From Botrytis cinerea B05.10 (Eukaryota > Ascomycota > Leotiomycetes > Helotiales > Sclerotiniaceae), in NCBI RefSeq assembly GCF_000143535.2, contig NC_037312.1:1178001-1242000 (forward strand): a stretch of DNA of 64,000 nucleotides, in the 5' to 3' direction. Made by a program: the position numbers and the translations under genes. Below are positions 23,800-63,628 of this stretch, one piece after another. Below the pieces are notes generated by a model. The model was not told where the DNA came from, searched no databases, and was given only the letters and a program-made list of their open reading frames with translations. Numbering within the stretch: position 1 is the stretch's first letter; each line of letters begins with the position of its first letter.

Positions 23800-26320
23800 A
23801 TGTCCGGAATTGAGATTGCAGGATTGGTCCTCGGTGGCTTCCCTCTCTTAGTTTCTGCTGCTGAGCACTACAAAGAAGGCTGGGAGCCTTTGATGAGATG
23901 GAAAAGATTTCGCACCGAGTTCCTACGCTTCATCGATGCTATCGATATTGAGAAACAATTGTTCGATCAGATGCTGGAGCGATTTCTTATCTCGGCCGAA
24001 GTTTCCCAGGATGAACTACAACATTTTCTTACGGACCCGAACTACCATGGATGGCACCGAGAAGATTTAGCTATGACCTTGAAGTCGCGCTTAGGTAATT
24101 CCTATGGGGCATTTGTGGGTTCAATCAGGACCATGAATGAACTCATGGCAGAACTGGAAAGCATGTTGTCGTTGAAAGATGGAAAGGTGAGATAAGAAAA
24201 TTATTCCTTTCCCAGAATGGGCAACATTCCAGATTCGCAGACCAGGTGTGAGCTATCAATACTTGATGTGCTCGAAATTCCTTCATTTCTTGTATGGAAG
24301 TTATTGAACGTCCGGGTCGATTTCAATACTCGAGAAGGATTCAACAATTCTAGCGACTTGAATAACATGTTTCGATCGAATTCAGTAAATTGAAAGCCTC
24401 TCATTACCAGGCTTCAATTAAAATCATTGGAACCCCTTTTCACAGAAATTTATACTGATATGACTGCAGTTTGACTGGGCGGATGAGGGAGCCAGTAGCT
24501 GGGACTATCAACTGAAAAGGATTCGGCATAGCTTTAGTAAACGAGGCACGATAACCATCGAGACCCTCGAAAAGCACAATCGGAAACTTCGGGAGCTGCT
24601 CGACTCAACTGACAAACTAGACAGTATGAAGTCCGCCAAGAGAGATACGGCTTTAGCAAATATATTTGGATGCATAAGAAGGCACGCGCAAAGCCTGCAC
24701 ACGGCTCTCAAAGACGGTTGGAACTGTGATTGTCAAGAGCCTCACAAAGTCTCTCTTCGGTTACAGCAACGTACCACGGGAGAATGGTCATCGTTGTTCA
24801 ACCTGTTATTCGAATATCCGAAAGACGTCAAAGGGGTTGCACACGCCCCTCATGAGTGGCGGGAGCTAGTTGTTAGTGCAAAACCAGCCAATACACAAAT
24901 AAATAGCCATGTTGACCATTTTCTGCACCCTTCTGCAGCACTCGTTGGTCGGGAGAAATTGCGGCAAAATTTCGAGCCAAAGTCAACCCCAGAGGTAAAC
25001 ATCACTACTAATCCAATACTTATTCCCATATCTCCTTCTTCCTCTACAGTATCACAATCGAGCTCTCGGGGATCGCCCTCGAGTAATCACTCAACAGCAC
25101 TCGCATCTGTTTCGACAAACGTGATTATAGAGGAAAGTCATGCAAAGTAAGCCATCGCCCCAGTCTCTTTTCTGTAAATACCAGAAGTATCACATTAGTT
25201 TTTATAACAGTGCGCTCTGCTTTTTTAGACAGCACTTTTCTAGTTTTCTCAACTCCCTCAAATCATTCGATTTCTTAAAATTCTCCACACATATGCACTT
25301 TTCCAATGATTTGAATGTTGCAGATTAGTTCTCAACTATTTTGGTTCTTTTGACAAGTTGAGCATTCGACCTGATAACGCGCTTGCTAATATCCGCTCTA
25401 GAAAATGGCTATCAGGAATCAAATCAAAAGTGAGAAAATCCGTCACGATTCATATGCCCCATGAGACTATGAATTCTACGCCACTTGCGCCAGAAATAGA
25501 CCTTTGTGTCCAAACTGGTTCATTCGCCTCACTTTCGATTCCACAAAGTCTCGCAGTCCCAAACGATATCAAAATCAACGACTTGTGCAAAGTTATTTAC
25601 GATTCCAGAGGCACATCTAACTGTTACTTGGGGTACCTGTCCGACGAGCATCAAAATTCCCACGAATTTCGCATCCTTGAAGATAACCCCGTAGCTCGTG
25701 GCCTTTGTGAACAGAATTTCATTAGCCTTGAAACTATTCTTTCAAAGCCCGATAAAGTCTCTCCTCTCAACCGGTATGAGCGATACAAAATTGCATACAT
25801 ACTGGCTTCTTCATTACTACAGCTTCAAAATGCTCCTTGGCTTACTAGCAACCTGCAAAAGCGGCATATCCTCTTTCCATGCGATTGGAACAACCACAAA
25901 ATTCTGATTGACCAGCCACATCTCCCCCACTCCTTTCTCTCCACAAAATCCCAATCAATAATACCAGTACAAACTCCAAACTTTAGCAGTCCTACTACCA
26001 CGGTCAAAAAATCACTCAGTGATCTCGGCATTGTATTACTCGAGCTATGTTTCGGGCAACGCATCGAGGAGCAATCGATCCGGCAAGAATTTCTCGTCGA
26101 TGGCAAAGAGCATGCACGCACGAACTATCTCACTGCTCTAGAGTGGGCCGACGCGGTATATGAACAAGAACCAGCATTGGAACATGTTATCAAATGTTGC
26201 ATGTTTTGTATCTTCGAAGAAAAAGCGAATTGGGATAACCTGAAGTTTACACAAGCTGTGTATGCAAGTGTGGTTGAGCCGTTGGAGAAGATAGTCAATA
26301 GCTGGCCAAATTCATCTTGA
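23800..26320 (+). CDS. DUF7580-type protein (fungal, HeLo/prion-like N-terminus and kinase-like C-terminus)
   Basis: Exons 23800-24186, 24470-25146 and 25324-26320 give 686 residues. The N-terminus (GLVLGGFPLLVSAAEHYKEG, RFRTEFLRFIDAI) and the middle (DWADEGASSWDYQLKRIRHS, LDSTDKLDSMKSA, ALKDGWNCDC) are the standard opening of a large ascomycete family. The C-terminal part (RYKIAYILASSLLQLQNAPWL, SDLGIVLLELCFG, ALEHVIKCCM) is the DUF7580 region, which resembles a degenerate protein-kinase fold with no catalytic Lys/Asp that I can find. Members often sit beside NLR-like genes and are suspected of roles in non-self recognition, but no activity is established. A Ser-rich low-complexity linker at about 315-355 joins the halves. 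Intron 1 is unusually long at 283 nt. Confidence 0.78.
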
Positions 26321-58896: not shown

Positions 58897-61800
58897 CTAC
58901 TCAAGCCAGAATTCCTGCCCCTCGTTATCCCCAGCTTTATATGCTTCCAATATCTCACCCTCCATGATACCTTCAGCGTAACTGGCATGAAATGTTAGCT
59001 TGTTTCTTTTGAGTACAAAAAGATGATTTTACCAATCCCCGACGAGCTTGTAACTTTTTTCCGGTGGCCCAGGTTCAGCCTGTGCATAATCAACTTGGAT
59101 TTCCCGAAGCAAAAATGGCACAATGCTACCAAATAACACGACCACTAAGTCACCCCTTCTAACACTCTGCGGGCCAAGACACTTGGTGTATCGTCGACAA
59201 TTAAATTCTACAGTTTTTTCCCTCTGGCTTTTCCAACATATATTTTGAGAAGGCCGCAGTTCTCGGTCACAATCAATAACGGAGTCAATGACAACACCCC
59301 ATACTTTCAAAGTCTTGAGGTCGCTAGAGAACTTAAATGGGTGATTGTGCAGGATATACTTGCCCCTAGCATTGTATGCTTGTGATACATCCTGTGGGTC
59401 TTGCAGTGTGCTTTGCTGTATGGCATCACTATAGACTTCGTCTGAATAAGGCATCCACGGAGTCCCAAGTCTCCCAGTAAGGAGTCAGGTTCCCATCGAG
59501 TGAGGTCTCCATGTTTAGAATGCTCATAGCTTTAGCTTTGCTAGTTACTGTCTCTGAGTTATCTCTCGACTCACTAAGCCACATTATAACTTCCTGGGCC
59601 TGGCTGTAGACTCTTGCCATTAGTGTTATCTGGAAGCTACGCTCTTCAAAGTTCAGCATATCAATACATATTGCATCTACCCAAAGCACGCGAGACTCAG
59701 TTTTGTCTCTTAAATGTACTAAAGCAGAGTGCAAATTTGGCCTCAGATGTTTAGAAAATCCGTTGCCGTACACCCTCCACACTTCCCCAGGGTTATCGTT
59801 ACCCCATGCATATGATAAAGCAACATAATCTGGATTGTTGTCCAGCGAATCCGTACATATGCCACACCTGAGCGGGGAGTCAAGGTCGTTGGATGGATAC
59901 AAAATCACAAGCCTAGTGGCATACGGATAGGGCCCTAGAATCGGTTTGTAAGGCGTTTGCTGGGAATTTATACTTCTCTCGGATACACCAGAGTCGTCGA
60001 ACGGGAAATCTAAATCCTGAAGCGCAACTAGAAGTTCCGTGTACATGTTTGGAGTGAATTTATGAGCACAGCTTCTTAAGCGGGCAGCCTCCATAGATAC
60101 AACCACTGGGCGTCGCCTGTAAAGAATGGGGTTCGCAATGCTATTGTGCAAACGCAAAGAATCCGGCGTAGTCCGCGCTTTTAAATTATAAGAATCCGTG
60201 GTCGCCATGATATGCATGGACCAAGAATACCAGCAATACTCTCGTAAATTAAAAGCAGCACTTCGCCCATCCTTATTTTTGAAGCAATGGAGGAGGTAGT
60301 AAAGGCAGGCTTGTGCTATTGTTTGGTGCTCCTTACGTATATCTGTAAATCGAAATAATCCAGGCGGACGACTGAAGTCGTGAATTGGACACAAATATTC
60401 TTGGACTGAGAAGTGAGCAATCTTAAGTATATGAACTCCTTGGGGCACCATTTCCACATCATCTACTAGTGGTGGTTCTAATTTTACCAGTCCAGGAAGG
60501 CTTTCCACAATATCGAGAGCATGACGACGACTTCCGATACAAAGTAGTTCATTTTTGAATAGTCGAATGGTGCAAACTTCCACGATCTCCTCCACAAATA
60601 ATGGCCGAGCTGCAAAAATGAGCCATTTCAATACTGTCTCAAGTTCTGATACCAAGATCTTTGGTATACGACTTATGATCAAATCATAAAAGATATCTAG
60701 GTCTCTAGGTAATGAAATGAAGATATTTTCAAGGTCTGCCTTTTGAATCACTCTCAAGTTCCTAGTAAGATACTCAAGTTCCTTCATTTGAAGTGCCGCA
60801 AGTCGGAACCTGTGCCTATTAATACGTTTATAGGAAAGCAATGCCGACAAGCCAAAACTTACATTCCGTCGGAGCCTTGACTAAGTCTTCGAGAAATCAG
60901 AGTCTTGATCTTGGTAGATTGAGAGTTAAGCCTCCTATGATTGGAGATTCGTGCCTGAACAAATTGTTCAATGTCAAGGGTTATGTGTGCAGTATCTCGT
61001 ATGAGCCATCTCCATCCGTAATCTTTAGGGAAGGACGATTTCAAATCACCCTCCTCGCGGCTCACGATGACGATTCTGAAGTTCGGATCTTGAATCGAGG
61101 ACAACTTCTCAATCACCTGAAGATAACCATCTCGTGGCTTTCCAGGGGGTACCTCATTCAATCCATCAACAACCAAAGTAATACTCTGACAGGCTTCAGG
61201 TGTTTCTGAGTTAGTCAACATGGCGGGGAAAACTTCGAGTGAGCTAACAATTGACAAAAGTAATGTTGTTAGTTGGACTGTCAAAGGAGGATACGGCTTA
61301 CAACTCTCATATAGCTCTTTCACTTCAGGCAGAAGGCCATGCTTTTCGTAAAGCTGTGCGATGATTGACCTTTGAAAATTGCCAACATCGAAGGTGGAAT
61401 TGTCACTGAATGAGCAGTAGTAAAATGCGACCAAGTGAGTATTATTTGAAGTGGCTTTCGGAGAGATAATCCGCAAGATGTTTGGAATATTTTCAATGAG
61501 ATGCGAGCTGTAGTCGTTAGTATTTTCTCTTTTTTTGAGACATCAAATGCAAGTATTCACCATATCATGGTTTTTCCGGATCCGACTATTTAATATCAGC
61601 ACTTCATATCCCATTCGATGATTAAAACTGGATCGAATGGTTGCGCTGAACATTGAACTTGTTCACAACTATCTGGAACATCTCTTTCCAATTTTTAGTA
61701 CTGAATTGGACAATGCAAAAGTCCATTCAATCCGAAAAATTGGGAATTACAAGGGCTGTTTTTAGGATGATGTTGATTTTTAAACGAAGTTAGGTGGACG

Positions 61801-62195
61801 CACCTTCTCCTCTCAACCATAGAAATTTCTTGTTCGAGGATGCCCATTCTTTGAAATCACCATTGAGAAAATCTTCCCCTGTGTCTTCTGCTCGTTCTTC
61901 ACGATGAATAGTATGCTCTTTGTATTGGGAGATTCTTAAATCTTCTGGATCGAGCCAATTCAAGATCTCATCTCTTTTCGGCACTGGTAATCAAAAGTCA
62001 GCGATACTAGACATGTCAATATTTCAATTGGGGATAGTTACCTGCTGCTTCATATGTTATGTTCGTTCCGACGAAGAGTCGGGAGCCTGCTTCAGCCTTG
62101 ATGTGACTTATATCCTGTATGATATTCTGGCGCTCGTGGGATCTGGTTTGACCATGATTTACGAGTCTATTTGTTAATGCCCCAGGAGAATTCAT
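58897..62195 (-). CDS. NACHT-winged-helix-HET chimeric NLR-like protein
   Basis: Exons 62042-62195, 61804-61983, 61561-61585, 60863-61507, 59549-60815, 59033-59391 and 58897-58981 give 904 residues in frame. A short N-terminus (ILNWLDPED, EWASSNKKFLWLRGE) leads to the P-loop GSGKT (113-117) and a Walker B, LVVDGLNE (D234). A winged-helix region follows (FISLPRDLDIFYDLIISRIP, KWLIFAARPLFVEEI, KIAHFSVQEYL). In the same uninterrupted exon a HET domain starts (YVALSYAWGN, RVLWVDAICID, ARVYSQAQEVIMWLSE). The tail RRGDLVVVLFGSIVPFLLR ... GDCYAEGIMEGE is the usual HET-protein C-terminus. HET proteins trigger heterokaryon-incompatibility cell death. The usual ankyrin, WD40 or TPR repeats are absent, and the last third of the HET domain (the WWxRxWxxQE part) is missing. 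The intron at 59392-59548 is inferred to keep the frame and may be wrong. Confidence 0.75.
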
Positions 62196-62454
62196 GGCGG
62201 CATTGACGTCTATTTGCGTGAATCTCTATCGAGTTTTATCAAATTTTTTTATTAGGATTAAATATAAGTTAGACTTTGTTCTATGGTGGATCGAGGCTCT
62301 GGGTTTCTAATTATAGTTCAGACAGCCATGCTATCCCCTGGATGCAGCTATCTCAGCCGCTATCTGAACATTACTTGTACATCATGTACATTCAGAATTT
62401 ATTCCATCTACTTGATTTGCTTTGATAATTCTTCAAATCATCAAGTCCTAAAGG
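62196..62454. promoter_or_regulatory. divergent promoter region of the NACHT-HET / PigL_N pair
   Basis: About 260 bp between the two start codons in head-to-head orientation. No specific element recognised. Confidence 0.5.
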
Positions 62455-63628
62455 ATGGCAGACGTTCTTGCTCTTGAAAGTGCAGTTGTTGGTATTATCG
62501 TTGCTGCTTTCCACAGTGCTAGTCTCCTGCACGATGATTTAAGCGAGGTAAAAATGCGGGTAGAGGCTATCAAACCTATCGTCGGTGATCTCGGCTCTGT
62601 CGTCGGTGTTCTTTCATCTCTGGATGCTACTGTGAAAAGAAGCAACCAGGCTCAAGGGGTAGCAAGCAAGATTGATAATGAAAATTTTAAGGCGGCGGCT
62701 GAAAATTGCAACAGGGTTTGCGCGAAATTTCGAGAAAAATTAGCCAAGTGGATAAGACACCCCTCGAACAATAAAATGGATTAGAGAGATAGGTTCAGGG
62801 TTGGATTTTGTCGGAACACGTGACCGATAAAACGTGATCATATCACGTTTTTCCCCACATACGCACGAAGTGCGTAAGTGGGATGGCAAACTTAGAATAG
62901 CAATCCCTCTTTATACAAAGAGGGCAGAAAGAATAACAAAATCTTTACCATATATGAATTTCGTGTATATATACCCTTAAGAAGTCCGCCCAACAGATCT
63001 TTGGCTGAGAAGGAACTTCTCGAGTTTAACAGACAGTTGGTGGCATGTAAAGGGACGTTCACGATCGCACTGCAAATGGCTACATTGTAAGCAAAGAATA
63101 CTGATTTTTGTACTTTTTCTGTATCGACTGCAATCTAATTTCTTCAACTCTAGTTCGGTTACTTTGCGGCAAACTCATGAAACTGAATCGGTTATCGAAA
63201 GATTAGACGATACCAATAAAAGCATAAACCAAGCGGGTCTTCTTGTTAGAGATCGTCTCGACAACCTTGACTATCAATTGCAAAGGGTTACGACTGAAGA
63301 AGTGTCTATGTCAGACAGAGAAGCAAGCCAGGTCATGTCTGGATCGGCTGCCAACGAAACATCACAGTCTTTGCCGCAACCTTCTCCACAAGAAACGCAG
63401 GAGATCTTTGAAAAAACATGGAAGCAGGCACTAGCAGAAATCGCTTCCCACCGAATTAAAATTGGTAAAGTGACTCAAGCTTCCAACGCTAAAGCGGTCA
63501 TAGGCGTTCACGGACTAGAAAATGCCAACGAAATGAATGTAGAGATAGACGATGTTTCCGTAGGACCGGGAAGTTGGTCGCTTGTGGGGGTTTCAAATGG
63601 TGTTGATTTGAATGCATTTTTCAAGTAA
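62455..63628 (+). pseudogene. PigL_N-domain (NLR N-terminus type) gene, broken by a stop and a solo LTR
   Basis: Starts MADVLALESAVVGIIVAAFHS and continues in the pattern of PigL_N domains, which often open fungal STAND proteins: LLHDDLSEVKMRVEAIKPIVGDLGS in short pieces, then CNRVCAKFREKLAKWIRH and KMD. A TAG at 62782-62784 replaces the usual Trp before RDRFRVG. Twenty bases on, a 187-bp LTR interrupts the codons. After it the frame resumes as LAEKELLEFNRQLVACKGTFTIALQMAT, an intron at 63087-63153, then SVTLRQTHETESVIERL and a C-terminal region ending at 63628. Removing the LTR and one 5-bp flank copy restores the phase exactly. Without the nonsense codon and insertion the product would be about 300 residues with no NTPase. 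Confidence 0.82.
62809..62995. mobile_element. solo LTR, probably Copia-type, 187 bp
   Basis: Begins TGTCGG and ends CCAACA, matching inverted ends (5 of 6) with the canonical TG...CA. It is flanked by GATTT (62804-62808) and GATCT (62996-63000), a 5-bp target duplication with one transition. Inside are an imperfect palindrome (AACGTGAT-cat-ATCACGTT), a GCAC/GTGC hairpin and TATA-like strings (TTTATACAAAG, GTATATATACC). No retrotransposon coding sequence is present, so it is the product of LTR-LTR recombination. Confidence 0.82.

What the first reader, a model, noticed from the sequence alone, without database searches (positions are those of the whole stretch)
58897..62195. NLR-like protein with HET domain behind NACHT and winged helix, and no repeat domain
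Known HET/NACHT proteins usually carry HET at the N-terminus and WD40, ankyrin or TPR repeats at the C-terminus. Here the winged-helix end and the HET start lie in one uninterrupted exon with no stop or splice site between them, so the fusion is in the genome and not a modelling error. The repeat sensor is missing and the HET domain lacks its last third. It may be a new architecture in which the NTPase drives a C-terminal HET, or a deletion joining two adjacent genes.
Basis: partly seen in the sequence, partly recalled or inferred. Interest (0 to 1): 0.75.

Follow-up and report, generated by a model that had tools for sequence, protein, structure and literature searches.

The report
Broken Botrytis immune receptor, rearranged domains
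In the grey-mould fungus and its relatives, an immune-type receptor carries a cell-death (HET) module where its sensing repeats should be and sits beside a likely cell-death partner gene, and in the strain sequenced here both genes are broken.

Summary
The window is a Botrytis cinerea chromosome (species from protein hits; strain B05.10 recalled from assembly size). In detail: one minus-strand gene (62195-58897) reads NACHT-winged helix-HET, with winged helix and HET in one exon and no repeats found. The fusion is not a local accident: six named Botrytis species, Ciborinia, Acephala and four unnamed records have HET behind the winged helix; in the 8 of these entries scanned, HET matches to position 145 or 146 of 146. 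What is local is damage: where another B. cinerea protein has 180 more residues, this DNA has an internal deletion, frameshift and immediate stop. Its C-terminus has two repeats, and the receptor's N-terminus one, resembling HET-s-related amyloid motifs. Best reading: a HET-S/NWD2-like amyloid two-gene cell-death module whose receptor carries HET in the sensor position. The partner is broken here too. My literature searches found no description of this order. Amyloid signalling and HET activity are untested.

The parts
58897..62195 (-). NLR gene (broken allele): amyloid-like motif - NACHT - winged helix - HET - frameshifted HET C-terminus
   Evidence: homologues
62061..62123 (-). NLR residues 25-45, r0-like motif matching the published HRAM signature at 7 of 7 positions
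   Evidence: signature from PMC4518210
61057..61882 (-). NACHT-type NTPase (NPHP3_N, PF24883), residues 86-270, with introns inside
61561..61585 (-). 25-nt mini-exon completing the P-loop (GEVGSGKT)
   Evidence: same peptide in P0001
60314..60876 (-). winged-helix (HETHS) region, residues about 331-500, motif AHFSVQEY; includes a 53-nt intron 60810-60862
59504..59827 (-). HET domain, profile positions 1-111 of 146
59431..59434 (-). junction of the internal deletion; the reading frame hits TAG at 59431-59429
58897..59433 (-). remnant of the HET protein's C-terminus in another frame, with a likely intron 58982-59032
62196..62454 (.). 259-bp divergent intergenic region between the two genes
   Evidence: sequence
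62455..63628 (+). HeLo-like (PF17111) partner gene, broken: in-frame stop at 62782-62784 and an LTR-like insert
62809..62995 (+). 187-bp dispersed insert, TG...CA ends, flanks GATTT/GATCT, solo-LTR-like; three other matches at 68-72% identity
63449..63511 (+). r1-like repeat of the HeLo-like protein (6 of 7 HRAM positions)
63533..63595 (+). r2-like repeat of the HeLo-like protein (5 of 7 HRAM positions), followed by an aromatic tail

Best explanation
In its intact form this is a two-gene cell-death module of Helotiales fungi. A receptor (amyloid-like r0 motif - NACHT - winged helix - HET module) is paired with a divergently transcribed HeLo-like protein ending in two amyloid-like repeats. Inferred mechanism: the C-terminal HET module occupies the sensor position and holds the NTPase off; a cue triggers nucleotide exchange and oligomerisation; clustered r0 motifs nucleate an amyloid that templates the r1/r2 repeats of the HeLo-like protein, whose N-terminal domain then attacks the membrane and kills the cell, as in HET-S/NWD2. 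The HET module may add a second, TIR-like output. Shown here: domain order, its conservation, linkage of the two genes, motif match. Inferred: amyloid relay, sensing, killing. In this strain the module is dead or altered: HET is cut by a deletion with frameshift, and the partner has a stop codon and an insert.
For: Order: 8 entries with a HET hit scanned by me (6 named species, unnamed P0009 and P0011) match HET to profile position 145 or 146. P0048, P0049 and P0011, all unnamed, also place HET behind the winged helix. In the own genome 0 of 43 other matches to the winged helix-HET exon span both parts. Partner: PF17111; 7 of 10 entries P0001-P0010 have a partner protein whose longest contig has the same length, with locus tags one or two steps apart in the 5 cases where both tags are shown. 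r0: 7 of 7 positions in the window and in the 7 Botrytis homologues that keep the N-terminus; 2 other matches in 29979 positions of 47 proteins; 38 of 20000 shuffles of the window's first 60 residues, 60 of 20000 for P0005. r1 6/7 in 10 of 10 partners tested, r2 5/7 in 9 and 6/7 in Ciborinia, loop 7 residues, aromatic tail, as PMC4518210 describes for HRAM pairs. HET is the most divergent region among 8 Botrytis-type entries (mean pairwise identity 0.70 against 0.82 NACHT and 0.84 winged helix), yet W670, E722, W793 and R795 are kept in 12 of 12 sequences with HET.
Against: Acephala's N-terminus fails the strict signature. A scoring matrix built only from r1/r2 gave mixed results: in 5 of 9 receptors, the window's included, N-terminal shuffles did as well in 122-324 of 2000, and in 3 of 9 (P0001, P0003, P0004) another place in the protein scored higher; in the other 4 shuffles did as well in 6-18 of 2000. 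Shuffles of the partner's tail match as well in 16-56 of 5000. No Pfam HET-s prion-domain hit was listed. Three of the full-length partners exceed the 310 aa used as a limit in PMC4518210 (P0040, P0041, P0047). Most HRAMs sit at NLR positions 5-9 (PMC9815663), here at 25. In the distant relatives HET is not consistently the least conserved part. Structure models are poor. No expression or functional data. Relatives are predicted gene models; P0006, P0007 and P0009 lack a readable P-loop.
Confidence: 0.6

Rival explanations
1. The C-terminal HET is the executioner: NACHT oligomerisation clusters and activates HET directly, as N-terminal HET is activated in HET-E, and the r0 resemblance is chance or relic.
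For: W670, E722, W793 and R795 of HET are kept in 12 of 12 family members with HET; HET alone is stated to be sufficient for cell death (passages of PMC10197012 and PMC12881547).
Against: It leaves unexplained the linked HeLo-like gene and the r0 signature in all 8 Botrytis sequences tested; in the surveys seen, NLR effectors sit at the N-terminus.
Confidence: 0.2
2. The two linked genes form a receptor/effector pair, but signalling is by ordinary contact, not amyloid templating.
For: r1/r2-derived scoring gives weak support for r0 in 5 of 9 receptors; strict signature missed in Acephala.
Against: r0 matches 7 of 7 published positions in 8 of 9 receptors tested; repeat number, loop length and aromatic tail fit HRAM proteins.
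Confidence: 0.15
3. A strain-specific deletion joined two adjacent genes, a NACHT NLR and a HET gene.
For: There is a real deletion in this gene.
Against: That deletion lies inside the HET part, not between winged helix and HET; species of two families share the junction with a complete HET.
Confidence: 0.02

Closest known systems
HET-S/NWD2-type HRAM gene pairs (HeLo or HeLo-like effector with r1/r2 beside an NLR with r0)
   Same: Adjacent divergent genes; HeLo-like PF17111 effector of 304-316 aa in the full-length entries with two C-terminal repeats, loop 7 aa, aromatic tail; NLR with a single N-terminal motif.
   Different: NLR has a HET module instead of WD/ANK/TPR repeats; motif at residue 25 rather than 5-9; r2 misses two signature positions. 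The HRAM survey's main text names no Botrytis or Sclerotinia.
HNWD family (HET-E, HET-D, HET-R): HET-NACHT-WD40
   Same: HET and NACHT in one protein.
   Different: Order reversed (NACHT-WH-HET), no WD40 found, amyloid-like motif at the N-terminus.
NACHT-ankyrin NLRs, among them HeLo-like-NACHT-ankyrin proteins of Botrytis (P0051, P0052, P0055, P0056)
   Same: Ankyrin NLRs are the next receptors outside the family: P0013 and P0014 of other fungi for the window protein, and P0051, P0052, P0055, P0056, labelled with PF17111, for the Acephala winged helix-HET query.
   Different: The Botrytis ones are all-in-one proteins with ankyrin repeats; here the HeLo-like part is a separate gene and HET stands in place of the repeats.
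het-B (HET plus lectin-fold protein, with a PII-like partner gene)
   Same: HET protein in a two-gene locus with divergent haplotypes (passages of PMC10890737).
   Different: Not an NLR; different partner; HET at the N-terminus.

Membership tests
HRAM amyloid NLR/HeLo two-component systems | 21-residue r0 motif at the NLR N-terminus (G19; hydrophobic 5, 8, 10, 16, 18; R/K 15) | tested here: met
   7 of 7 positions in 8 of 8 Botrytis sequences with an N-terminus (window and 7 homologues); not met in Acephala P0010
HRAM amyloid NLR/HeLo two-component systems | HeLo or HeLo-like effector, under 310 aa, with two C-terminal repeats, loop 6-18, aromatic tail | tested here: inconclusive
   PF17111 met in 3 of 3 scanned; 304 aa in five B. 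cinerea entries, 305-316 in other full-length species entries; loop 7 and FF tail met; r1 6/7, r2 5/7 or 6/7 in 10 tested
HRAM amyloid NLR/HeLo two-component systems | Effector and NLR genes adjacent | tested here: met
HRAM amyloid NLR/HeLo two-component systems | Pfam HET-s prion-domain match (PF11558) | tested here: not met
   No such hit listed for 3 partners and 3 receptors at E up to 10 (HMMER filters drop most matches above 0.1); not decisive, only 38 of 155 HRAM proteins match it (PMC4518210)
HRAM amyloid NLR/HeLo two-component systems | Amyloid templating from receptor to effector | not testable with these tools
   Needs fibril and seeding assays
Fungal NACHT NLRs | P-loop, Walker B and winged-helix motif | tested here: met
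   GEVGSGKT, TLVVDGLNE (DGLDE or DALDE in the 10 relatives scored), AHFSVQEY. Foldseek with a low-confidence model lists NLR and CED-4 structures, NOD2 and NLRP3, but also many origin-recognition-complex chains
Fungal NACHT NLRs | C-terminal WD40, ANK or TPR repeats | tested here: not met
   No repeat family listed in the window protein or in the relatives scanned
HNWD (HET-E/D/R) | N-terminal HET domain | tested here: not met
   HET starts at residue 663, and at 572-663 in the six named relatives scanned
HET domain proteins | Complete HET domain | tested here: not met
   Window: 1-111 of 146. Relatives: the match reaches position 145 or 146 in 8 of 8 entries scanned that have a HET hit

The most novel reading that the evidence does not exclude
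A lineage of Helotiales NLRs has exchanged its ligand-sensing repeats for a whole HET protein, so that a TIR-like death domain became the sensor, or a second output, of an amyloid-relayed receptor. The paired loss of both genes, and the split of B. cinerea into two HeLo-like haplotypes differing mainly in the first 50 residues, would mark it as an allorecognition locus with a null haplotype.
Probability: 0.35. Interest if true: 0.75.

Novelty: new variant of a known kind. Interest (0 to 1): 0.6.

Why it matters
The surveys whose passages I saw treat HET as an N-terminal NLR effector and C-terminal repeats as the sensor (PMC10197012, PMC4986451). A conserved receptor with HET in the sensor place, linked to an amyloid-type HeLo-like partner, gives a natural test of whether HET can regulate as well as kill, and of what activates fungal NLRs that lack repeats. 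It also shows that the B. cinerea strain sequenced here carries a broken version of a locus that at least one other B. cinerea record keeps with a complete HET, a candidate difference in strain compatibility.

Tried and rejected
Rejected: fusion by local deletion (homologues share the junction); broken P-loop (my first impression; a 25-nt mini-exon supplies it); a paralogue in the same genome (NACHT exon, HET C-terminal piece and partner C-piece match only themselves; the partner's N-piece has one 31% match).

Led nowhere: AlphaFold models of the receptor (mean pLDDT 47.7) and partner (40.6) were too poor for HET or HeLo fold claims; PDB sequence search gave nothing for the receptor and one weak hit for the partner; NCBIfam gave only hits far below their cut-offs. 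A matrix built from r1/r2 gave mixed support for r0, told under evidence against. The stretch with intron 2 matched only itself in the genome. No DNA of other strains was at hand, so breakpoint microhomology and the frequency of the deletion were not measured.

Full report
WHERE. The window is C3:1178001-1242000 of a 42,630,066-base, 18-contig genome. Best protein hits, 93% for the receptor and 97-99% for the partner, are named Botrytis cinerea; that it is strain B05.10 is recalled from the assembly size, not given by a call.

THE GENE. On the minus strand five exons read as 794 aa ending at a TAG at 59431-59429. A 25-nt exon (61585-61561) completes the P-loop. Pfam finds NPHP3_N (a NACHT-type NTPase) at 86-270 and HET at 663-770, profile positions 1-111 of 146; no repeats. 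The winged helix (AHFSVQEY) and HET lie in one exon of 1381 nt.

THE FUSION IS OLD. A search of 5.8 billion proteins gave 29 hits among 6950 candidates. P0001 (B. cinerea), P0002-P0006 (B. fragariae, B. aclada, B. sinoallii, B. byssoidea, B. narcissicola), P0007 (Ciborinia camelliae) and P0010 (Acephala macrosclerotiorum, Mollisiaceae; 41% identity) carry NPHP3_N and HET in this order in the alignment. P0008 (B. hyacinthi) ends before HET; P0009 and P0011 (unnamed) begin after NACHT. Pfam scans of P0001, P0002, P0004, P0005, P0007, P0009, P0010 and P0011 match HET to position 145 or 146 of 146. P0003 and P0006 were not scanned by me and rest on the precomputed labels and the alignment. A second search, with Acephala residues 300-800, gave 24 hits and added P0048 and P0049, unnamed records with HET behind the winged helix. 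These are predicted proteins, and some models are visibly cut (P0006 and P0007 around the P-loop). NCBI calls P0001 'ankyrin repeat protein', but no ankyrin family was listed for it; the next receptors outside the family are ankyrin NLRs. In the own genome, 0 of 43 other matches to the winged helix-HET exon cover both parts, and the NACHT exon and the HET C-terminal piece match only themselves.

THE LOCAL DAMAGE. In P0001, 180 residues lie between the two sides of the junction at 59434-59431. Here they are missing, the frame changes and TAG follows at once. The HET C-terminus continues in another frame and ends like the relatives that keep their ends. Nine donor-acceptor pairs could bridge the frames by splicing, but none could supply the missing residues. 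The Walker B motif reads DGLNE here and DGLDE or DALDE in the 10 relatives scored. Before the junction the window differs from P0001 at 52 of 794 residues.

THE PARTNER GENE. On the other strand, 259 bp away, starts a PF17111 gene (HeLo-like, so named in PMC9815663). The partner's C-terminal search gave 18 hits. Of the 10 receptor entries P0001-P0010, 7 have a partner protein whose longest contig has the identical length (P0001/P0030, P0003/P0043, P0005/P0041, P0006/P0042, P0007/P0047, P0008/P0044, P0009/P0046), and the locus tags are one or two steps apart in the five cases where both are shown (P0003, P0005, P0006, P0007, P0008). None was listed for P0002, P0004, P0010. Here the partner has an in-frame stop (62782-62784) and a 187-bp insert with TG...CA ends and near-matching 5-bp flanks, with three other matches at 68-72% identity in the genome. 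Its first 50 residues differ at 14 positions from five B. cinerea entries (P0030, P0032, P0033, P0034, P0036) but at 3 from P0031 and P0037, while the last 157 residues differ from these seven at 1-8. P0031 and P0037 have gene models that skip the region of the insert, which suggests, without proof, that they share it.

THE MOTIFS. PMC4518210 (abstract, Results part 1 of 2, figure and table section, and passages seen) defines HET-s-related amyloid motifs: G19, hydrophobic 5, 8, 10, 16, 18 (T sometimes at 10), R/K preferred at 15, two repeats with a loop of 6-18 (154 of 155) in HeLo-type proteins chosen under 310 aa, often an aromatic tail, and a copy on the adjacent NLR. I tested this rule. 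Receptor residues 25-45 fit 7 of 7 in the window and in the 7 Botrytis homologues with an N-terminus; Acephala does not fit. Chance: 38 of 20000 shuffles of the window's first 60 residues and 60 of 20000 for P0005; two other hits in 29979 positions of the 47 proteins; 4 in 28044 positions of window ORFs, a count that was not split by source. The partner's repeats fit 6 and 5 of 7 (Ciborinia 6 and 6), the loop is 7, the tail ends in FFK. Less favourable: shuffled tails do as well in 46 of 5000 (P0030), 56 (P0040) and 16 (P0047); and a matrix trained on r1/r2 placed r0 beyond 1% of N-terminal shuffles in only 4 of 9 receptors, with a better-scoring place elsewhere in 3 of 9.

HOW IT MAY WORK. 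By analogy with HET-S/NWD2 (passages), oligomerised receptors would expose clustered r0 motifs that template r1/r2 and arm the HeLo-like domain. HET in the sensor place is the odd part. Among 8 Botrytis-type entries (P0001-P0006, P0008, unnamed P0009), HET is the least conserved region (mean pairwise identity 0.70; N-terminus 0.79, NACHT 0.82, winged helix 0.84, linker 0.77, post-HET 0.78, tail 0.81), though W670, E722, W793 and R795 are kept in 12 of 12 sequences with HET; in the distant relatives HET is not consistently lowest. This fits a fast-evolving sensing part that keeps the fold, but equally a second output under diversifying pressure. I put the first ahead because NLR sensing parts are C-terminal; this is inference.

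LITERATURE. Full-text searches: 'C-terminal HET domain' with NACHT, 0 papers; 'HET domain', NLR and Sclerotiniaceae, 0; 'C-terminal HET' counted 0 in every fungal NLR paper among the 15 listed of 114. Other listings showed no title or abstract start about this order; most of those papers were not opened. Passages of NLR surveys describe HET as N-terminal. [quoted passage not shown] whether the post-HET tail here, labelled PF26639 in P0002-P0004, P0007 and P0010, is that domain was not tested. Bcvic1/Bcvic2 were seen only as a reference title; that they are another locus is recalled. Supplements, subscription papers and bioRxiv were not searched, so absence in print is not established.

Noticed in passing
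62809-62995: Dispersed 187-bp element with TG...CA ends and near-identical 5-bp flanks, inserted in the HeLo-like gene; three other matches at C1:1265210, C16:1231239 and C11:1347439.
   Followed up: partly
62455-62784: B. cinerea has two HeLo-like haplotypes that differ mainly in the first 50 residues (window against five entries: 14 of 50, against 1-5 of 157 in the C part); B. calthae sides with the common one (3 of 50).
   Followed up: partly
61153-61179: Walker B motif reads DGLNE in the window allele but DGLDE or DALDE in the 10 relatives scored.
   Followed up: no
1698-1795: tRNA gene on the minus strand, the only Rfam hit at gathering threshold in the window.
   Followed up: no
25310-26317: Open frame with a DUF7580 match, a family I did not look into.
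   Followed up: no
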